NCBI GenBank assembly: GCA_903838125.1
Contig: CAILXF010000034.1
Span: forward strand, 1-34,897
From: an uncultured Pseudomonadota bacterium
Lineage (GTDB): Bacteria > Pseudomonadota > Gammaproteobacteria > Burkholderiales > Methylophilaceae
Direction: 5' to 3'
Length of the DNA: 34,897 nt
Shown: positions 2,497-9,044 of the stretch, in pieces
Position numbering within the stretch: position 1 is the first letter of the stretch
Layout: each line of letters begins with the position of its first letter
Program-made: the position numbers and the translations under genes
Notes under the pieces: generated by a model
Databases searched by the model: none
What the model saw: the letters and a program-made list of their open reading frames with translations, nothing else
Told to the model about the DNA's origin: nothing

Positions 2497-2856
2497 GATA
2501 ACGCTCCATATTTAACGATTAAAATTAGGATGTAACAACTTATTGTAGTTTGTACTTATAGTTGAGTCGGCGCTTGACCTGTATCAATAAAGTTCCAATG
2601 AAATAATGTGTTAGGTATACGAGCGGCTACTATTGGTCATTAGTACTAAAAGCCGGCGACTGCTTTAGGAAAGTTTTAGTTTCAGATATTATTCCCTCAC
2701 ATTGATGGGGGCGGACTGGCTATATGCTAGCTTTTTTATTGGTTGGAATTAAGTCCCAGAGTACGATAGACGTAGATGGGGAAACTCTACATAGCCCCAA
2801 CATATAATAAAATATAACTGATATAAAAATCCTTAATTTCCATAAGCTATTGTTTT
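2497..2856. other. Intergenic DNA left of the integrated element
   Basis: No gene is seen. Before the element inserted, this DNA lay directly downstream of the tRNA-Arg gene. A weak terminator-like run (GCTA, five-base loop, TAGC, then six T) is at about 2719-2740 on the plus strand. A cluster of short inverted segments at about 2770-2805 (GTAGA..TCTAC and GGGG..CCCC) has no recognised role. Confidence 0.35.
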
Positions 2857-2913
2857 TATTGGTGCCCCCGACACGAATCGAACGTGTGACCCTCCCCTTA
2901 GGAGGGGGATGCT
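2857..2913. repeat. attachment-site repeat, displaced copy of the tRNA-Arg 3' part
   Basis: This is identical over 57 bp to 8966-9022. It contains the anticodon arm, variable loop, T arm, acceptor 3' strand and CCA of tRNA-Arg(CCU) on the minus strand, but no 5' acceptor strand or complete D arm, so it cannot make a tRNA. The match breaks at 2856 (T versus C) and at 2914 (G versus C). It marks the far end of the element and is the junction with the original downstream chromosome. Confidence 0.93.
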
Positions 2914-2929
2914 GCGCCCGTTGGGCGCA
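2913..2929. other. Perfect hairpin abutting the attachment repeat
   Basis: TGCGCCC (2913-2919) and GGGCGCA (2923-2929) form a 7-bp perfect stem with a GTT loop, starting at the last base of the 57-bp repeat. No T-run follows on either strand, so it does not look like a terminator. It may be a recombination-protein site or a strand-exchange-related structure of the attachment site; the role is unknown. Confidence 0.5.
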
Positions 2930-3254
2930 CGAGTTAAAATCGAAAAAGCTAATAAATTCACACTGTTAAGATACATTTGTTTTTTTTAAACCATGTACAT
3001 TTTGCACTAAAAACAATAGTAAGTGTGATGAGATTGTGATGAACTTAAAAATCTAGGTTGTCACAAGATGCAGTCCATGCGCATGCTGGATAAGGTAAGT
3101 AACGCGCTAAGTGGTCCTCACACTGGATGACAGACCCCACCCCATTACATTTTTCATAGTCATGAACTTCGACCCCACCACCCCCACTTTTATGAAGTTT
3201 GTCCAGCTACACCCCCGACTCTAAATTGAAGAGGCAGTCATAAAATTTTAAATT
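2930..3254. other. Non-coding left end of the element
   Basis: About 325 bases without a gene. Besides the paired TGTGATGA motifs, the stretch 3130-3222 has three C-rich tracts (ACCCCACCCC, ACCCCACCACCCCC, ACACCCCC) separated by AT-rich spacers, with GAACTTC and GAAGTTT flanking the central one. No insertion-sequence end or RNA gene was recognised. Confidence 0.4.
3024..3042 (+). promoter_or_regulatory. Paired TGTGATGA motifs, putative integrase arm sites (left)
   Basis: Two direct copies of TGTGATGA (3024-3031 and 3035-3042) are spaced 11 bp start to start, followed by ACT. The same pair with the same spacing and orientation, also followed by ACT, occurs at 8904-8922 at the other end. Arm-type sites of tyrosine integrases are short direct repeats flanking the core at both ends, which fits. 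Here they lie 111 bp inside the core repeat. Confidence 0.6.
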
Positions 3255-3482
3255 TTATTTTTTTGAAATTAAGTCGATAACTGAAACATCAAGTTGATGA
3301 GCAATCTTTGTGAGTATCTCTAATGATGGGTTTGCTATTTGCCTTTCAATTTTACTTACCAAAGTTCTATCCACTCCCGCCTCCAGTCCCAGCTTCTCTT
3401 GGGCTATAGCCTTCTCTTTTCTTAGTACTTTAATATTGTTGCTCAATATTAGCTTGAGCTCTTTAAAATCAGATTCCCACAT
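3255..3482 (-). CDS. XRE-family helix-turn-helix regulator (element repressor)
   Basis: This 75-aa protein is essentially a single Cro/CI-type HTH domain: a helix with IKVLRKEKAIAQEKLGLEAGV, a recognition helix DRTLVSKIERQI, then NPSLEILTKIAHQLDVSVIDLI. It resembles small phage repressors and restriction-modification controller proteins. The ATG at 3482 has GGGAG seven bases upstream; a TTG at 3506 is an alternative start that would add eight residues. It is divergent from the small membrane protein gene, and the intergenic DNA holds three CCACGG repeats at a 14-bp period, which are likely its operators. It probably controls its own promoter and element gene expression. Family is confident; the repressor role is inferred from size and position. 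Confidence 0.85.
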   Translation of the reverse strand: MWESDFKELKLILSNNIKVLRKEKAIAQEKLGLEAGVDRTLVSKIERQIANPSLEILTKIAHQLDVSVIDLISKK

Positions 3483-3538
3483 CACCTTACTCCCATCTAA
3501 CGTCAATTTGGGAGTGTTCGTTTATTCAATTTTTTAAT

Positions 3539-3572
3539 CCACGGCTATAGTTCCACGGTTAAAAAGCCACGG
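3539..3572. promoter_or_regulatory. Three CCACGG direct repeats, putative operator array
   Basis: CCACGG occurs at 3539-3544, 3553-3558 and 3567-3572, exactly 14 bp apart, each followed by an AT-rich spacer (the last two start TT). The array lies between the divergent XRE regulator and membrane protein genes. Regular phasing in the intergenic region of a small HTH regulator suggests an operator; iterons for the Rep protein are an alternative. Confidence 0.6.
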
Positions 3573-3656
3573 TTTTAAAACATCAAAATATAAGTTAGAA
3601 TGGTAATCAAATTAATAATAAGTTGTATCTGTGGAACTCAAAAGCAAAGGATGAGC

Positions 3657-3860
3657 ATGGCTACTAATAAAGAAAGACGAGAGCAAGAAGATAAGTGGCA
3701 AGCTGGAAAGGATTTAAAAAAATCAAAGGAAGTAGAGACTGTAGTTCTTTCTTTATTTGCAGCATTTATTTTTCTAGTGATAGCTGCATTTACAGGAAGT
3801 GGTTTTTTTATCTTCCTTATTTTTGTTGCACTATCTGTAGCCATATTTACAGGTCGATAA
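3657..3860 (+). CDS. Small two-helix membrane protein, unknown function
   Basis: The 67-aa product has a highly charged, lysine/glutamate-rich N-terminal half (about 1-25), then two hydrophobic segments (about 27-44 and 47-65) separated by a short Gly/Ser turn, ending in a short Gly-Arg tail. This predicts an inner-membrane hairpin with a cytoplasmic charged head. The ATG at 3657 has AAAGGA five bases upstream; frames starting earlier (3600 or 3651) lack a better site. It is divergent from the XRE regulator and probably under its control. Small membrane proteins in phages and satellites may act in superinfection exclusion, lysis or host-envelope sensing, but nothing in this sequence selects one of these. 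Confidence 0.65.
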   Translation: MATNKERREQEDKWQAGKDLKKSKEVETVVLSLFAAFIFLVIAAFTGSGFFIFLIFVALSVAIFTGR

Positions 3861-4006
3861 TTGTAGATTGTAAAGATTTCCTTTGTTGTAGTTAAATTAA
3901 GTGAAAAATATCGCTCATAAATAGCATTAAAAAAACAAACCCACTGGGGCATCTTTGTTCAGGTGAAAATGAAATATTACCCTCTTAAACTTGATGCATT
4001 AAGGTC

Positions 4007-4033
4007 TTGACGGAAGGGGCCACTTTACATAAT
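4007..4033 (+). promoter_or_regulatory. Possible promoter of the secreted repeat protein gene
   Basis: TTGACG (4007-4012) and CATAAT (4028-4033) resemble sigma-70 -35 and -10 boxes but are only 15 bp apart, and the ATG at 4048 would follow within about ten bases of the transcription start. The match is suggestive only. Confidence 0.28.
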
Positions 4034-4047
4034 TGATTGGATACACA

Positions 4048-4407
4048 ATGAAAAAAGTCTTTTTATTTTTTGCAATCGCATTAAATTTTATTTGCTTCGA
4101 GGTTAATGCCGAGCAAATTAATGTTCGCCATAGCGCTTTTACATCTGTAACAGGGGTTTTTGAGGAGGCGAGGAGTCAATGTGCACAGATGGGAAAAGTT
4201 GCTTTATTTGTAAGTGTTTATGATTCGCAACATAAAATATTTGAATGTAGTGATAATAGTTCCAGTCAGATAGTAGTCCATCATTCTTCGTTTGCCTCAC
4301 AGGCTGGGGTTTTTGAAGAAGCCAAAGCCCAATGTGGCCAACAGGGGAAAACGGCAGCTTATGTCGGTACTTATGATTCGCAAAATAAGATATTTGACTG
4401 CAGATAA
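4048..4407 (+). CDS. Secreted protein with two tandem 45-residue repeats
   Basis: The 119-aa product starts with a Sec signal peptide (MKKVFLFF..., predicted cleavage after VNA at about residue 21). The mature part is two copies of a 45-residue unit, residues 23-67 and 74-118, identical at 28 of 45 positions. Each unit has a GVFEEA helix-like segment, a central Cys (45, 96) and a terminal Cys (67, 118) after YDSQ(H/N)KIF, so each repeat could hold one disulfide in the periplasm or outside. I do not recognise the family. The TTG at 4033 is a poorer start because it precedes the signal peptide charge region. It sits in the integrated element between replication-side genes and the regulator, in the position expected of cargo. 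Any role such as exclusion of other phages or surface binding is a guess. Confidence 0.75.
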   Translation: MKKVFLFFAIALNFICFEVNAEQINVRHSAFTSVTGVFEEARSQCAQMGKVALFVSVYDSQHKIFECSDNSSSQIVVHHSSFASQAGVFEEAKAQCGQQGKTAAYVGTYDSQNKIFDCR

Positions 4408-4415
4408 AGCAATGA

Positions 4416-4439
4416 GGAATATCTTTTCGAAGATGTTCC
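4416..4439. terminator. UUCG-loop hairpin between convergent genes
   Basis: GGAATATCTT and AAGATGTTCC form a 10-bp stem (one G-T pair) around a TTCG tetraloop. It lies eight bases after the stop of the secreted protein gene and before the end of the convergent Cys/His protein gene. There is no good T-run, so it may be a bidirectional transcript end or an mRNA-protecting hairpin. Confidence 0.5.
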
Positions 4440-4470
4440 AAGCTTAGTGTATATGGCTACTTCTAAATTT

Positions 4471-4830
4471 TTATTCCATTCTCTGCAAATTTTTCTTAAC
4501 CACGGGCGATGACATGATTTTGCAGTACCCATTTGCTTTGCGGCCTTGTGAGCGCTTAGCGGTCGTTAAGCCCAGTAGATGCATTGCATCCTCTAATTGC
4601 TGTAGCTCGAGGCTTTGTTCACTAGCTTGCTTTTGACTTTCCAGTGTGCGGTTGCCGTGGGTGTAGTTAGGATGTAAATCACCTCGTTTGATTGATTCCT
4701 TTTTTCTTGCCCCGTGCATTTTGCACGTCCGACAACCATAAGCTGCTGGGTTATTGCAGGGCAGACTCGTTCTCTTTGACTTTCCAGCGCAAAGCTTCGC
4801 GCCATGCTTAACAACGCTAGGCAGCGGCAT
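4471..4830 (-). CDS. HGGxS-like phage-type Cys/His protein
   Basis: The 119-aa protein has an N-terminal module GAKLC..(T)SLPCNNPA..GCRTCKMHGA (about residues 10-41), matching the pattern CGAKTRxGxPCxxPAxxxGRCxMHGG of small phage proteins commonly annotated as HGGxSTG-domain proteins. Cys14, Cys25, Cys36 and His39 are the likely zinc ligands, with Cys33 extra. The rest is charged, with a possible helix at about 66-87 (QKQASEQSLELQQLEDAM). In phages such proteins often lie near the small terminase subunit, but their function is not settled. The gene overlaps the 3' end of the upstream 156-aa gene by 14 bases, so translation is probably coupled. The family call rests on the motif alone. Confidence 0.65.
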   Translation of the reverse strand: MPLPSVVKHGAKLCAGKSKRTSLPCNNPAAYGCRTCKMHGARKKESIKRGDLHPNYTHGNRTLESQKQASEQSLELQQLEDAMHLLGLTTAKRSQGRKANGYCKIMSSPVVKKNLQRME

Positions 4831-5287
4831 CGTATGGTTGCACCATTAAAATAACTGCATCACAAACTGCTATAGCTCTAACATAGGCCTTTATTAGCTC
4901 AGAATTGCCTGTTAAATGTTTTATATACTCATCCCTAACCGAAGTCCTCAAATAATTATTAAGATCGTCACAATACCCCACAAGAAGCGCATCTTTCCTA
5001 AGTTCATCTTCCACAGCCAGTTGGATGTTTGCATAAACACCACATTTACTCGCACCAACTATAGGATAAATAGTGAAGCCCCATTGGGCTGCTAAGATTT
5101 TAGGTAGCTTTTTTAAGTAGGTATCATTTCCCGCTTGGGGGTTAGTTAATAAGTTAGCTATGTTTTTTGCTTCCCGAATTAGCTCACATCTTAGGTCGAT
5201 TATGTCTTGAAGGTTTACTTTGCTCCTGCTCTTGTGTCTACGATGCGCTGCATCGAAAAGTTTTTTACTACATATTCCTTCATTCAT
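4817..5287 (-). CDS. Unknown 156-aa protein of the element
   Basis: No family was recognised. The N-terminal third is basic (KKLFDAAHRRHKSRSK), followed by mostly helical, mixed-charge sequence with four cysteines (6, 82, 105, 142) and a hydrophobic C-terminal segment (about 137-150, RAIAVCDAVILMV) ending in YDAAA. It has no signal peptide. A Shine-Dalgarno AAGGA lies eight bases before the ATG. It overlaps the downstream Cys/His protein gene by 14 bases, forming a two-gene unit separated from rep by two hairpins, so it probably has its own promoter. A weak -35/-10-like pair (TTTACA, TAAATC) lies upstream at about 5330-5358. Confidence 0.6.
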   Translation of the reverse strand: MNEGICSKKLFDAAHRRHKSRSKVNLQDIIDLRCELIREAKNIANLLTNPQAGNDTYLKKLPKILAAQWGFTIYPIVGASKCGVYANIQLAVEDELRKDALLVGYCDDLNNYLRTSVRDEYIKHLTGNSELIKAYVRAIAVCDAVILMVQPYDAAA

Positions 5288-5377
5288 TTTAAAAATCCTT
5301 TTGAATAGGCCGGCTCATAGCCACAGCCGATTTAATAATTCATTGACCTATGTAAAGCAGTTCTTTAATTCCATAAA

Positions 5378-5396
5378 GGCACCCTTTTAGGGTGCT
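5378..5396. terminator. GC-rich hairpin between rep and the 156-aa gene
   Basis: GCACCC (5379-5384) and GGGTGC (5390-5395) form a 6-bp stem with a TTTTA loop, extended by one G-T pair. On the minus strand it is followed by TTTAT, so it could end rep transcription before the downstream operon; on the plus strand it is followed by ATTTAT. Confidence 0.45.
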
Positions 5397-5453
5397 ATTT
5401 ATATATAGGGGATTCCCTTATAAACCCTTGTAAAACCTTAGGTTCTGGAGAGG

Positions 5454-5543
5454 AAAGGGCGCGCCCTTGCGCGCCCGTATAAATAAATTACATATATAAA
5501 ACAATATGTTATGTATTTTATATTGCCCTTTCGTTTGCCCTTT
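5454..5543. other. Origin-like stretch downstream of rep
   Basis: This non-coding stretch combines a 7-bp GC stem (GGGCGCG at 5457-5463 with CGCGCCC at 5470-5476, containing the palindrome GGGCGCGCCC), a strongly AT-rich segment (about 5477-5524), and two direct TTGCCCTTT repeats 12 bp apart (5523-5531 and 5535-5543); the inverted form AAAGGGC recurs at 5454-5460. Repeats, an AT-rich region and palindromes are usual parts of a replication origin for a RepA-type helicase. The hairpin could alternatively be the rep terminator, since CTTTCC follows it on the minus strand. Confidence 0.35.
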
Positions 5544-5547
5544 GCTT

Positions 5548-7494
5548 TTATAGACCTGCCAAAGTAGTACCACTTGTGGTTAGTTGCATAGCCCCTCGCG
5601 TTGGTATTGTTAGAAGGCCTTGCTTATTCAAATCTTCTAATTTCAGAACGAGTGCTTTTTCAGATAACCCGAACTTACCCGTTGCAGACCCATAGGATTT
5701 TTTGAATTGAGTTTTTGAAGTTGGATTAATCTTAATTTCTTGAAGAATAGATAAGTCTTGGTGCTGGCCAGCCTTCATACCGAATTGCTCTAGTGTTCCG
5801 TCTGTACGCTTACACAAAATCATTGGGGCTATTGGTGCTCCATAATTCGACTTCACACTACTGAGAGTTAGCACTCTAGGCATGATTATTTGCCGACCAT
5901 AAGCCTTTTCAATCTCAGCATCACTTAGCGCATTCAACTCATACACTAACCTTACTCCATCAATAAAAGCGCTTGACCCTCGTGCATTGTTTTGGGATGT
6001 GCCGTTAGTTTTTGCACCCTTGTTAACGTGATGAAGCGCCAATACAGTTGCACCCAGTTGGTCTCGTAGGTACTGAAGTGATTGAACAAAACGTGTTGTA
6101 TCAGAAGCAGAATTCTCTTCACCGCCCCTAAAACGAGATACTGGGTCAACAATGATTAGGTCAACTGAGTCACCAGCAACTTTTTTAATCGTTTCTACTA
6201 GCCTCAATGGTACGTTGGTTATCTGCACTTCACCGACAGCTGGCTTTTGGGTAAATAATTCGAAGGCATCCGCCAAATCAATGAAATGTAAATTCTTATC
6301 GATACTAGTTACGAGTGCTACTGGCATTCCATAAGTAACCGCATGAAGCCTACGTTTAATTTCAGTCTCATCATCTTCTCCGCTAATAAAAACAACTCTA
6401 GCTGGTTTAGTTGGTATGAACTTTCCAAAAAGACTAGACCCTGATGCTGACGACACAGCAATGTGCATTGCTAGATAGCTTTTACCTGTCCCACCAGCTG
6501 CGATAAGTGCAGCCACTACCTTACTAGGTAGAAAGTCTTTGATAAGCCAACTACGTGCTTGTGGGAGTGATGCCAGCAATGAACCTGCTGAAATTAAACG
6601 AAAGTTATTTGTAGCGGAAACTACCGATAAAGTATTCGCTTGAACAGAGGGGTTGTTACGTAGTTCAGTTTTCCAAATACTTGCGTGGGTTCTTGTTACT
6701 TCAGCAACATCCAACGGCTGTGGCAATGACTGATTCCAAGATAATGCCAACGTCAAAGTGTCATTAAAAATTAAACGCTTGCCAATTAAGCTTGCAATAT
6801 GGCGCATTAAAGCATCATTTCTTCCACCCACTTGCACACTGGATGGTGCAAGAGGAATTAGAGGCAATAATGAATTAGTTGCTAAAGTGGTTTGCTTAGT
6901 TTGCGATGGAATTAAGCAAGTTGCTGGATCTAATGGAATGCCCTTGATTCTAACAAACTCTGCACAAGAACTTCTTTCGATAGGGTAGCTAAACAAGTAG
7001 TAAGCTCTAGAAACGTCTGAACACGCTTTGTCAATGATTGACGCTAATGCTGGATTAAGCGATAAAAACCCATCCCTAACAGCAGTAAAGTGTTTAACAG
7101 GCACTGACTTCAGAAGCCTGACGATTAAACGATATCGCGGCTCCTGTTCGGTGTGTGACCATGTGGTATGAGCTATTACATCATAGCCTTGAACCAGATT
7201 AACAATGTCATTAGCGGATTTGCCTTGAGAGTCATCAATATCAAACACTAGCAATGAAACTTCAATCACATTGCTATTTCCGCGCTTTGCATCGCTAAGA
7301 CTGTATGGTCCAAAAAGTGGACCATCTTTAACTTCTGAGATAAACGGATTGGCAAGTTGCGTACATAACTTTTCCCAAGATAAATCAAATAATTTAGCTG
7401 AGGTAGATTTTATGCCTGTATACAACGATATTGGGTATTTTAATTCACAATCAACTTCTTGATTTAAAACAATATTTCTGATATTCTGTACCAT
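5548..7494 (-). CDS. Primase-like/RepA helicase fusion replication protein
   Basis: This 648-aa protein is the probable replication initiator of the element. Residues about 20-190 look like a primase-polymerase (archaeo-eukaryotic primase-like) domain: VFDIDD with Asp85 and Asp87, then TTWSHTEQEPRYRLIV with His114, Arg120 and Arg122, and D...SRAYYLFS around 160-169. Residues about 305-560 form a RepA/AAA_25 hexameric helicase ATPase with Walker A AAGGTGKS (332-339), the SGEDDETE acidic motif (371-378), Walker B DLIIVD (445-450) and the LALHHVNKG sensor segment (485-493). The C-terminus (about 580-640) looks like a winged helix. The ATG has GGAG eight bases upstream. The leader carries a 16-bp inverted repeat and a possible leader peptide. 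Similar primase-helicase fusions serve P4-like satellites and PICIs in role, though this belongs to a different ATPase family from P4 alpha. Confidence 0.82.
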   Translation of the reverse strand: MVQNIRNIVLNQEVDCELKYPISLYTGIKSTSAKLFDLSWEKLCTQLANPFISEVKDGPLFGPYSLSDAKRGNSNVIEVSLLVFDIDDSQGKSANDIVNLVQGYDVIAHTTWSHTEQEPRYRLIVRLLKSVPVKHFTAVRDGFLSLNPALASIIDKACSDVSRAYYLFSYPIERSSCAEFVRIKGIPLDPATCLIPSQTKQTTLATNSLLPLIPLAPSSVQVGGRNDALMRHIASLIGKRLIFNDTLTLALSWNQSLPQPLDVAEVTRTHASIWKTELRNNPSVQANTLSVVSATNNFRLISAGSLLASLPQARSWLIKDFLPSKVVAALIAAGGTGKSYLAMHIAVSSASGSSLFGKFIPTKPARVVFISGEDDETEIKRRLHAVTYGMPVALVTSIDKNLHFIDLADAFELFTQKPAVGEVQITNVPLRLVETIKKVAGDSVDLIIVDPVSRFRGGEENSASDTTRFVQSLQYLRDQLGATVLALHHVNKGAKTNGTSQNNARGSSAFIDGVRLVYELNALSDAEIEKAYGRQIIMPRVLTLSSVKSNYGAPIAPMILCKRTDGTLEQFGMKAGQHQDLSILQEIKINPTSKTQFKKSYGSATGKFGLSEKALVLKLEDLNKQGLLTIPTRGAMQLTTSGTTLAGL

Positions 7495-7512
7495 ATTAAG
7501 GACTCCATTAGA

Positions 7513-7567
7513 GCCTCTAAATATGTAGAATGTATGGCGTGAGAAACCTAGCTACATATTTAGAGGC
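7513..7567 (-). promoter_or_regulatory. 16-bp perfect inverted repeat in the rep leader
   Basis: GCCTCTAAATATGTAG (7513-7528) is exactly repeated in inverse at 7552-7567, with a 23-base spacer. It sits six bases upstream of the rep Shine-Dalgarno. As RNA it would form a stable stem just before the rep start; as DNA it could bind a dimeric regulator or Rep itself. The stop codon of the possible leader peptide lies inside the first arm in the direction of transcription. Confidence 0.7.
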
Positions 7568-7617
7568 GTAATTATATAAAACGAGCTTGAGCTCGCTGTT
7601 TTACAGCGGTTAAACAT
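7552..7617 (-). CDS. Possible 21-aa leader peptide upstream of rep
   Basis: An ATG with a strong Shine-Dalgarno (GGAG, eight-base spacer) opens a 21-codon frame, MFNRCKTASSSSFYIITPLN plus Met, ending in TAG within the 16-bp inverted repeat. Four consecutive serine codons lie over the second hairpin. A ribosome stopping here would occupy the first arm of the repeat and could change folding of the rep leader. The size is too small to judge by coding statistics; the ribosome site and the position of the stop are the only support. Confidence 0.4.
   Translation of the reverse strand: MFNRCKTASSSSFYIITPLNM
7578..7608 (-). terminator. Overlapping hairpins, possible attenuator in the rep leader
   Basis: In the direction of transcription the first hairpin is CGCTGT-AAA-ACAGCG (7608-7594) and the second is CGAGC-TCAA-GCTCG (7595-7582) followed at once by TTTTATAT. 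The second has the form of a short Rho-independent terminator. The two share bases 7594-7595 (and one more if a G-T pair is counted), so they compete, as in attenuators. Both lie inside the possible leader peptide frame. Confidence 0.45.
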
Positions 7618-7898
7618 TTTTTATTCTCCGATTAGTCTTTTTTCTCATTCCAATACTGCTCAAAAACTCAGTGCTGAAAGGTATTGTGGGTTATTTTTAT
7701 CGCACATCCCACTTAATAATGCCATTCTAGTAATGTATCTTGGTGAATGCAATATATATTTATAATCAATAAGTTAGGTTGATATCACCTGACTTTTTAT
7801 GATGCCTTATGACTTGCTAAGCCCTCAATTGATACTATGAAAATAAATAGACACTCGTTCTTTTCTTACCCAGTACCCATATCACTTCGCGCTTTGCA
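7618..7898. other. Gap between integrase and rep leader
   Basis: This stretch holds the predicted rep promoter and a leader region. Only very short frames are seen on the minus strand (12-21 codons), none with a clear AlpA/Cox-type excisionase. GTGGG and CCCAC at about 7687-7711 could pair around a 17-base loop in the leader. Confidence 0.35.
7724..7752 (-). promoter_or_regulatory. Predicted sigma-70 promoter of rep
   Basis: Reading the minus strand, TTGCAT (7752-7747) and TAGAAT (7729-7724) are separated by 17 bp, a good match to -35 and -10 consensus. Transcription would start near 7716 and give a leader of about 220 bases before the rep ATG, containing the leader peptide, the overlapping hairpins and the inverted repeat. 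Confidence 0.55.
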
Positions 7899-8891
7899 TC
7901 AACCAAGTTTCTTCGCTAAATCCTCAGCCTTTAAGTGGGTGTAGCGTTTAAGCATCTGCAAGGTCTTGTGTCCAGTAATAGTTGCAACCTCCATCATATT
8001 CATTCCTCCCTCAAATAAGCGTGATGTAGCCTCGTGCCTTAGGTCATGAAATCGAAAGTTAACAATGCTTGATTTTAAAACTGCTCGATGCCATGTGTGT
8101 TCAAAGCTATCAACACTCTTCCATTCCCAGAAAACTCTTGTGTTGCTTATGTGCCTTGGTAAGTTTTCTAATAGCCGAATCGCTTTGGTTGATAATGGCA
8201 CCATTCTAACTTCGCCATTTTTTGTGTGATGTAGGGTCGCTACTCTAGTGAAAAAGTTAATATCAACCCAATTCAATCCAAGTAGCTCACTTAAGCGCAT
8301 ACCAGTTTCAATATCAAATAAAACTATAGCCACTAACATAGGCGCCTTGCTTTGCCTGCATGCAGTTAATAACTGCTCTTCCTCAATACTGCTTAATCTT
8401 CTATCCCGTCCTCTTGCTGCCTTTGGCTTACGAATAAGCTTTACTGGATTAGCTGTAATAGGTAGACCCCAGTCTTTAGTTGCTGTATCAATAACATGGG
8501 ATAGGGTATTAAGTTCTTTGATTACTGTGGCACCAGTAAGTCCAGTATTCATTCTTAAATCGCGATATTGAGCTACATGCTTGCTTTGTACTTGTGTAAC
8601 CATAAGATAACCGAAGTGTGCTTTCAGAATGGCCAGTCGACTTTTCTCTCTGGATGCGGATAGCTTGTGTGGTGTGACTTCTATCAAATAACGGCTAAAG
8701 AGTTCTGCCATTGACGTACTGTCGGCTTCAGTTCTATCTAAAAAGATACCGCGATCTATTTCAGACTCAACTTGTCTTGCCCACATTGCAGCATCTGATT
8801 TGTTTATGAATGTATTAGTGATTGGCTTGTGCCCAGTGCGTCTTATTTGAGCTTGCCATTTAGAATTATTAAGCTGTCTTATCGATGCCAT
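7899..8891 (-). CDS. int: Tyrosine-recombinase integrase of the element
   Basis: The 330-aa product catalyses site-specific integration and excision at tRNA-Arg(CCU). The N-terminal part (about 1-55) is a beta-rich arm-binding-like domain (SKWQAQIRRTGHKP), residues about 60-150 are the core-binding SAM-like domain, and the C-terminus is catalytic. The catalytic set is complete: Arg199 (TGMRLSELL), Lys224 (HHTKNG), His282-x-x-Arg285 (FHDLRHE), His308 (GHK) and the nucleophile Tyr317 (KRYTHL). I chose the ATG at 8891 because GGAG lies five bases before it; the ATG at 8903 has no ribosome site. Its start region is overlapped by the paired TGTGATGA motifs, so the integrase may repress itself. It ends 78 bases from the 57-bp repeat side on the tRNA end, as usual for such elements. 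Confidence 0.95.
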   Translation of the reverse strand: MASIRQLNNSKWQAQIRRTGHKPITNTFINKSDAAMWARQVESEIDRGIFLDRTEADSTSMAELFSRYLIEVTPHKLSASREKSRLAILKAHFGYLMVTQVQSKHVAQYRDLRMNTGLTGATVIKELNTLSHVIDTATKDWGLPITANPVKLIRKPKAARGRDRRLSSIEEEQLLTACRQSKAPMLVAIVLFDIETGMRLSELLGLNWVDINFFTRVATLHHTKNGEVRMVPLSTKAIRLLENLPRHISNTRVFWEWKSVDSFEHTWHRAVLKSSIVNFRFHDLRHEATSRLFEGGMNMMEVATITGHKTLQMLKRYTHLKAEDLAKKLG

Positions 8892-8903
8892 TTCCACTCC
8901 CAT

Positions 8904-8922
8904 TGTGATGAAAGTGTGATGA
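8904..8922 (+). promoter_or_regulatory. Paired TGTGATGA motifs, putative integrase arm sites (right)
   Basis: TGTGATGA occurs at 8904-8911 and 8915-8922, 11 bp apart and followed by ACT, the same arrangement and orientation as at 3024-3042. The pair lies directly upstream of the integrase start and 44 bp inside the core repeat, where arm sites and autoregulation would be expected. Confidence 0.6.
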
Positions 8923-8965
8923 ACTAGCTTTTTTGATTGGTTACGTTGCCGTAAGACCTTGATTC

Positions 8966-9022
8966 TATTGGTGCCCCCGACACGAATCGAACGTGTGACC
9001 CTCCCCTTAGGAGGGGGATGCT
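8966..9022. repeat. attachment-site repeat within the intact tRNA-Arg
   Basis: This is the copy of the 57-bp repeat that is still part of the functional tRNA gene: the anticodon arm to CCA (8969-9022) plus three flanking bases. The integrase gene lies immediately inside it. Confidence 0.93.
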
Positions 9023-9044
9023 CTATCCACTGAGCTACGGGGGC
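8969..9044 (-). tRNA. tRNA-Arg (anticodon CCU)
   Basis: Reading the minus strand from 9044, the acceptor 5' strand GCCCCCG pairs with CGGGGGC before the discriminator A and an encoded CCA at 8971-8969. The D arm has GCTC/GAGC, the anticodon stem is TCCCC/GGGGA around the loop CTCCTAA (anticodon CCT, reading AGG), and the T arm has the conserved TTCGATT. The tRNA is 76 bases long including CCA. It is the integration target; the element restored its 3' part, so the gene remains intact. AGG is usually a rare codon served by this single tRNA. Confidence 0.97.

What the first reader, a model, noticed from the sequence alone, without database searches (positions are those of the whole stretch)
2857..9022. 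Minimal 6.1-kb replicative element at tRNA-Arg(CCU), candidate new phage-satellite type
Seen: a perfect 57-bp duplication of the tRNA 3' part, an adjacent complete tyrosine integrase, a primase-like/RepA-helicase fusion, a small XRE repressor, a phage-type Cys/His protein, and no capsid, terminase, relaxase or transposase genes. Known: P4-like satellites and PICIs pair an integrase, a regulator and a replication protein and depend on a helper phage. Inference: this is a very small satellite-like or plasmid-like integrative element in a methylotroph lineage, perhaps of an undescribed family.
Basis: partly seen in the sequence, partly recalled or inferred. Interest (0 to 1): 0.72.

Follow-up and report, generated by a model that had tools for sequence, protein, structure and literature searches.

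The report
Minimal phage-satellite-like element with terminase-like protein
A 6.1-kb DNA element sits between two copies of a tRNA gene end in a bacterium that is probably a freshwater methylotroph; it encodes an integrase and a replication protein but no recognisable virus coat genes, and is likely a phage satellite, in which a small zinc-type protein, whose kin in several viruses lie near the DNA-packaging enzyme gene, would steer a helper virus into packaging it.

Summary
A perfect 57-bp repeat of the tRNA-Arg(CCU) 3' part (2857-2913, 8966-9022) brackets seven ORFs: tyrosine integrase, primase-like/RSF1010-RepA-type helicase fusion, a 156-aa ORF, a Cys/His protein, two small accessory ORFs and an XRE regulator. 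Paired 11-bp repeats lie near both ends, as in a lambda-type attP. It does not look like a remnant: siblings occur in Polynucleobacter and other Betaproteobacteria. One is a contig that closes on itself (6,288 bp) with one copy of a moaC-end core; that core is doubled around siblings in two genomes and single, without element, in three. A sister genome has the intact tRNA-Arg without the element. The Cys/His protein is the main lead. In relatives it lies beside a replication gene even where that gene is of an unrelated kind, and it is profile-similar to the HGG_STG domain, which in one phage is the front of a small terminase next to the large terminase. Likely mode: excision, replication as a circle, and helper-phage packaging redirected by this protein. 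Packaging is inferred: there are no virion, helper or induction data, and no close relative was found among viral contigs. By the markers tested it fits none of P4-like, PICI, PICMI or cfPICI.

The parts
2857..2913 (-). distal attachment-site copy (3' part of tRNA-Arg)
   Evidence: 57 nt identical to 8966-9022
3024..3045 (.). paired 11-bp repeat, predicted integrase arm site, distal end
   Evidence: pattern found twice in the window, 0 in 100 shuffles, post hoc
3255..3506 (-). XRE-family regulator, 83 aa
   Evidence: HTH_3 1.3e-11; 43% identical over 72 aa to the XRE protein at the distal end of L023
3600..3860 (+). 86-aa ORF with membrane-type C-terminus (by eye), accessory
   Evidence: ORF; no family above cut-off
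4048..4407 (+). 119-aa ORF, signal-peptide-like start and two internal copies of a ~50-aa unit (by eye), accessory
   Evidence: translation; no family above cut-off
4471..4830 (-). Cys/His (HGG_STG-like) protein, 119 aa; proposed packaging adaptor
   Evidence: 297 relatives among 299 candidates; profile match to phage HGG_STG proteins; beside replication genes in relatives
4817..5287 (-). 156-aa ORF of unknown function, overlaps the Cys/His gene by 14 bp
   Evidence: 6 proteins found, itself included; weak match 4e-4 in sibling region L006/L041
5548..7494 (-). Rep: primase-like N-terminal part, PriCT_1, RSF1010-RepA-type hexameric helicase
7513..7567 (.). perfect 16-bp inverted repeat, 23-nt loop, upstream of rep: candidate origin or operator
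   Evidence: same repeat in L021, not found in the 7 other relatives tested
7899..8903 (-). tyrosine integrase (relatives suggest start at 8891)
   Evidence: Phage_integrase 2.3e-29; alignment A3
8904..8925 (.). paired 11-bp repeat, predicted integrase arm site, proximal end
   Evidence: such a pair by the integrase start in 6 of 8 elements tested, window included
8966..9022 (-). proximal attachment-site copy within the intact tRNA and its 3' edge
8969..9044 (-). tRNA-Arg(CCU), integration target
   Evidence: ARAGORN, Rfam tRNA 68 bits

Best explanation
This is a 6.1-kb element bracketed by a doubled tRNA-Arg(CCU) end that is likely a phage satellite: it would be cut out by its own integrase, copied as a circle by its own Rep, and packaged by a helper phage whose terminase the element's Cys/His protein is predicted to redirect. 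Shown here: the repeat, the genes, the paired 11-bp repeats near both ends, a sibling contig that closes on itself with a single core, and sibling sites both occupied and empty. Inferred by homology: integrase action, and the primase-like plus RepA-type helicase activity of Rep. Inferred with less support: that the Cys/His protein acts as a small-terminase-like or Rpp-like packaging adaptor. It stays beside replication genes of unrelated kinds, it resembles the HGG_STG zinc-type domain, and in phages that domain occurs in a small terminase and upstream of large terminases. XRE would hold the element silent until a helper arrives (inferred).
Against: No virion, induction or helper data. In IMG/VR one scan with Rep found no relative, one with its alignment a single distant one (33% over the helicase part), one with the Cys/His alignment none; neither protein is in the 80 viral contigs kept for integrase relatives, three of which hold distant relatives of siblings' other replication genes. 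No TerL_ATPase (PF03354, the only large-terminase family tried) in the 86%-complete host draft. The window protein itself does not reach NF041373. The domain also occurs in Haloferax volcanii and without integrase or primase nearby in 2 of 9 class-level loci, so it is no proof of packaging. moaC siblings in G109 and G092 lack the Cys/His gene, and the L024 copy lacks the zinc-type cysteines. The Cys/His model is weak (pLDDT 69). In two of the five phages TerL is 1.4 and 3.5 kb away, and in one of these (LuckyBarnes) another gene is annotated as TerS and the match to the window protein is weak (E 0.6).
Confidence: 0.57

Rival explanations
1. An integrative plasmid-like element without a helper phage: it would excise, replicate through its RSF1010-type Rep and spread by natural transformation, vesicles or mobilisation by a conjugative element through an unrecognised oriT.
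For: The helicase part of Rep resembles plasmid RepA most closely; no packaging has been seen; oriT-only mobilisation cannot be excluded; no close relative found in viral contigs.
Against: No record with 80% of Rep among 857 plasmid records hit and no relative of the L160 Cys/His variant in 72,556 plasmids (the window variant was not run there); the Cys/His domain points to phage packaging.
Confidence: 0.27
2. The Cys/His protein serves replication (a zinc-binding partner of the primase/helicase) and not packaging; the element may still be a satellite that is packaged in another way, for example through a helper-like pac or cos site.
For: It lies beside the replication gene in 7 of 8 loci, and 5 of 9 class-level HGG_STG loci have a replication gene nearby; no binding evidence exists.
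Against: It is kept beside unrelated replication enzymes; phage homologues mostly lie upstream of TerL and one is a TerS.
Confidence: 0.3
3. A deletion remnant of a larger prophage or ICE.
For: Small size; left flank not syntenic with the sister genome.
Against: Same core build in independent 4.5-12.5 kb elements at other sites, one a contig closing on itself; rep and Cys/His genes show excess third-position differences.
Confidence: 0.04

Closest known systems
PICMI (phage-inducible chromosomal minimalist islands, Vibrionaceae; PMC10803314, passages seen)
   Same: about 6.1 kb, integrase plus primase gene, no capsid-remodelling genes, site-specific integration
   Different: no AlpA and no DUF3987/DUF5906 primase in the window element, tRNA-Arg instead of fis, carries an HGG_STG-like protein; some relatives do carry AlpA or DUF5906
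Gram-negative PICI (PMC6092414, PMC6739421, passages seen)
   Same: integrase, regulator and replication gene; a small protein proposed to act on the terminase, as Rpp does
   Different: no AlpA, different replication enzyme; homology of the Cys/His protein to Rpp was not tested; induction and packaging untested
P4-like satellites (PMC8628076, passages seen)
   Same: integrase, primase-helicase; sibling L155 has a P4/D5-type primase
   Different: no Psu, delta, epsilon, alpha or AlpA in the window element by Pfam; Sid not tested
Putative satellite group G8 of glacier viromes (PMC4490671, passages seen)
   Same: small circular scaffolds with integrase and primase, described as lacking structural genes
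   Different: 14-16 kb, P4-type prim-pol, one member listed with tail and terminase genes; a link was not tested
Flexible genomic islands of Methylophilaceae, incl. tycheposon-like fGI-3 (PMC10872708, passages seen)
   Same: tRNA-Arg(CCT) is the stated edge of the replacement island fGI-1 in this family
   Different: those islands are described as phage-defence, metabolic or resistance regions; the word 'satellite' has 0 occurrences there

Membership tests
integrative element at a tRNA | integrase plus direct repeat of the tRNA end | tested here: met
integrative element at a tRNA | relatives without the element keep the intact site | tested here: met
   G028 tRNA-Arg intact; for siblings at moaC 3 of the 5 genomes read are empty, a sixth (G117) searched but undecided. 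The window's own left flank could not be matched
phage satellite (general) | packaged in particles of a helper phage | not testable with these tools
   no virion reads; no close relative found in viral contigs
phage satellite (general) | encodes a gene or signal favouring packaging | tested here: inconclusive
   Cys/His protein matches phage HGG_STG proteins found near TerL; function unproven
P4-like | Psu, delta, epsilon, alpha (PF03288), AlpA; Sid | tested here: not met
   none of the Pfam ones in the scan of the window ORFs; Sid needs a custom profile and was not tested
PICMI | AlpA plus DUF3987/DUF5906 primase next to fis | tested here: not met
   target is tRNA-Arg
Gram-negative PICI | AlpA regulator | tested here: not met
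   no AlpA in the window; present over cut-off in relatives L041, L156, L159
Gram-negative PICI | phage-dependent induction and packaging | not testable with these tools
   no culture or reads
cfPICI / prophage | capsid, portal, large terminase genes | tested here: not met
ICE / IME | relaxase or conjugation genes | tested here: not met
   oriT alone not testable
RSF1010-type replication | RepA helicase | tested here: met
RSF1010-type replication | separate RepC initiator and iterons (recalled) | tested here: inconclusive
   no further ORF with a replication family and no iteron array, but the 156-aa ORF is of unknown function
VEIME / tycheposon | found in virus particles / tRNA-bounded tyrosine-recombinase cargo element | tested here: inconclusive
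   tRNA and recombinase present; no virion evidence

The most novel reading that the evidence does not exclude
A widespread, unnamed family of very small phage satellites in freshwater Betaproteobacteria (with distant kin in other Proteobacteria), defined not by its replication enzyme, which is freely exchanged, but by a conserved HGG_STG zinc-type small-terminase-like protein that redirects helper-phage packaging.
Probability: 0.45. Interest if true: 0.76.

Novelty: new variant of a known kind. Interest (0 to 1): 0.6.

Why it matters
If right, one small, well-conserved protein family (297 relatives found here; among the 120 listed most have no source name, the rest are called hypothetical, 'glucans biosynthesis protein' or McsA) would mark satellites in common freshwater bacteria, for which the paper searches made here turned up no satellite report in the rows shown. 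It would also suggest a role for the HGG_STG domain, for which one search found no paper: the part of a small terminase that lets a parasite element claim a helper's packaging motor. Both can be tested with existing virome reads and simple binding or deletion assays.

Tried and rejected
A single-sequence scan of viral contigs with Rep gave 3 pattern matches and no relative; the Rep alignment gave one distant contig of 20 matched stretches; the Cys/His alignment gave none. Rfam: above gathering score only the tRNA; below it the truncated tRNA copy and three chance-level rows. No iteron array. The Cys/His fold was too weak to search. The fold comparison covered Rep residues 310-575 only, so the primase nature of the N-terminus rests on PriCT_1 and PHROG matches and on motifs recalled for that class; no primase appears in the fold rows shown, which is not evidence against one. 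The third DNA hit, G000:C60, is a sequence downstream of tRNA-Phe, not a second copy of the element. Considered and dropped: prophage remnant, ICE, transposon. Of the 17 loci only L021-L025 were read; L026, L029 and L030 were compared by BLAST and gave no Cys/His hit; the other nine were not examined.

Paper searches: HGGxSTG, 0 papers; satellites with freshwater/RepA/integrative terms, 8 papers; satellite with Polynucleobacter/Methylophilaceae terms, 90 papers, 10 shown, none of the 10 with 'phage satellite'. 'Undescribed' rests on these searches of open-licence papers only; for every paper cited I saw listings or passages, none in full.
Full report
What is there. tRNA-Arg(CCU) lies at 8969-9044 on the minus strand. 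Its 3' part, 57 nt with its edge, is repeated without a mismatch at 2857-2913. Between the copies are seven ORFs: XRE 3255-3506(-), 86 aa 3600-3860(+), 119 aa 4048-4407(+), Cys/His 4471-4830(-), 156 aa 4817-5287(-), Rep 5548-7494(-) and integrase 7899-8903(-). Pfam gives HTH_3, PriCT_1 plus AAA_25, and Phage_integrase. No structural, large-terminase, relaxase or transposase family is hit. A paired 11-bp repeat lies by the integrase start and again 110 bp inside the other end (2 matches against 0 in 100 shuffles, a post hoc pattern), the layout expected of integrase arm sites (inference).

Integration and excision. The exact empty site of this strain cannot be shown because the left flank differs. 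In sister genome G028 the intact tRNA-Arg, with 91.7% identical DNA on the right, is followed by umuDC and no element; the element was not found in G028 or G007, which are 88% and 71% complete. In the window's own genome umuDC is on another contig, C23, where the likeness to G028 stops at the tRNA end and other genes follow for 4.2 kb. The tRNA-Arg(CCT) is described as the edge of a replacement island in Methylophilaceae (PMC10872708, passages), which would explain a variable left flank. In the 16 other genomes of the genus whose tRNA-Arg stretch I read (L120-L135), the repeat core occurs once in each stretch; further genomes listed were not fetched. Stronger evidence comes from siblings with a related integrase (42-45% identity; 42% in G092) that use the end of moaC (Pfam MoaC 2e-55). 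G109 has a 4.5-kb element and G092 one of about 7.9 kb, each between two copies of a 116-121-bp moaC-end core. G101, G063 and G081 have one core and no integrase there; in G101 the two flanks meet directly, in the other two one or two unrelated genes lie between. A sixth genome searched, G117, is undecided. Contig L024 (6,429 bp, 141-bp exact terminal repeat, so a circle or head-to-tail array of 6,288 bp) has one core. L155 also lies beside a moaC-like end, judged by eye. Paired 11-bp repeats stand by the integrase start in 6 of 8 elements tested, window included, but on both sides of the core only in the window and L024; none was found in L021 and L155.

The Cys/His protein. It has 297 relatives among 299 candidates; the 120 listed are 65% or more identical. 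Of 187 genomes of the family, 10 have it, the host included. I fetched loci from 8 of them (not the host, not G117 with a 22-residue match). In 7 of 8 it lies within one gene of a replication gene, on the same strand in all but L159, and in 6 a tyrosine integrase adjoins. L161 ends before an integrase would come. L158 holds a truncated copy without replication gene; its integrase is 6 kb away beyond host genes. The replication genes are of different kinds: RepA-like, D5/P4-type, DUF5906/VapE-type, family-A DNA polymerase. In the five loci L021-L025 a Cys/His or HGG_STG ORF follows rep directly or one gene on; the L024 one is short and lacks the cysteines. Diverged members (L159, L160, L023) pass the NCBIfam model HGG_STG; L155 is sub-threshold and the window protein has no hit. 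The profile of the mixed family matches phage HGG_STG proteins at 98.1% (55 columns), that of the window's close family at 88.5% (33 columns).

What HGG_STG proteins do in phages. Two searches gave 9 records: 4 at E<=1 with the window protein (E 0.01 and 0.6, so weak) and 5 at E<=1e-3 with the L172 protein; the L160 protein gave none in 50,697. I count them as six kinds and read one record of each. Pasteurella phage Pm86: 196 aa, HGG_STG plus terminase small subunit (phrog_1889, 1.1e-24), TerL after a 2-bp gap. Bacillus phage vB_BpsS-36: TerL 0.5 kb on. Staphylococcus phage MVC_VPHSA2: 0.6 kb. Brevibacterium phage LuckyBarnes: 1.4 kb, with another gene annotated as TerS between (no NCBIfam hit; phrog_3678 match). 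Pectobacterium phage PcaP2EGY: a GpA-type TerL 3.5 kb on. Thermus phage Cumys: no TerL annotated in the stretch. So in one case the domain is the front of a small terminase, and in 5 of 6 it lies upstream of TerL in the same direction.

In-genome and class-level comparisons. The host contig C50 carries another element-like block: integrase, RepB-type primase, RepA-like gene and, on the opposite strand beside it, a Terminase_2 small subunit, then type I restriction genes (the restriction genes named by eye). There a true terminase subunit fills the place that the Cys/His gene fills in the window. Across the class, 9 of 369 genomes have HGG_STG at E<=1e-4, 8 over the cut-off. Of these 9 loci, 7 have an integrase and/or replication gene in the stretch (in L174 only an integrase, 4.4 kb off), 2 have neither (L175, L178), and one (L172) has an Sf6-type small terminase beside it. 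The one control genome of 14 that rings is Haloferax volcanii, so the domain is not specific to satellites.

Mechanism and verdict. I take the element to be a phage satellite (0.57): XRE holds it silent; integrase excises it; Rep replicates the circle; the Cys/His protein, alone or with a helper's TerS as PICI Rpp does (PMC6739421, passages), brings the helper terminase to element DNA. Excision and replication are inferred from homology plus the sibling circle and empty sites; packaging is inferred. Against it: no close relative found in viral contigs, no TerL_ATPase in the host draft, two moaC siblings without the Cys/His gene. It is not P4-like, PICMI, PICI or cfPICI by the markers tested. 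Some relatives carry AlpA, so the boundary to PICI/PICMI-type satellites is not sharp. I call it a new variant of a known kind. The host is taken as a methylotroph because of the island pattern in PMC10872708 and a Methylophilaceae name on a relative of the Cys/His protein; its taxonomy was not tested directly.

Noticed in passing
host genome G000:C50, L040/L180: A second element-like block: integrase, RepB_primase, RepA-like gene, Terminase_2 small subunit and type I restriction genes; looks like a TerS-bearing satellite.
   Followed up: partly
host genome G000:C23, L136: In the umuDC region the likeness to G028 stops exactly at the tRNA-Arg 3' end and unrelated genes follow; about 9.4 kb more than in G028 lies between the tRNA-Ser(GGA) side and umuDC.
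   Followed up: partly
L023 7948-20545: 12.5-kb sibling in a Burkholderiaceae MAG between 54-bp tRNA-Arg(UCU) repeats carries an MmeI-like type IIG restriction enzyme, a DEAD helicase and a T5orf172/MUG113-type protein.
   Followed up: partly
L022 14892-21875: Polynucleobacter sp. 31A-FELB: a cluster that looks like kinase, FHA, protease and PP2C-type genes beside a sibling element; unclear whether cargo.
   Followed up: no
L024 679-2361: The circular sibling carries a cation/proton antiporter (Na_H_Exchanger + TrkA_N) as cargo.
   Followed up: no
window 4048-4407: Secreted-type ORF that seems made of two copies of a ~50-aa unit with conserved Cys; no family above cut-off.
   Followed up: no
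window 2713-2856 and G000:C60:30583-30749: A ~140-bp sequence is shared between the left flank of the repeat and the region downstream of tRNA-Phe (72%).
   Followed up: partly
L275 405-8425: moaC-site sibling in G092 has the integrase and many small lipoprotein-like genes, but no hit to window Rep, to the sibling replication genes tried, or to the Cys/His protein.
   Followed up: no
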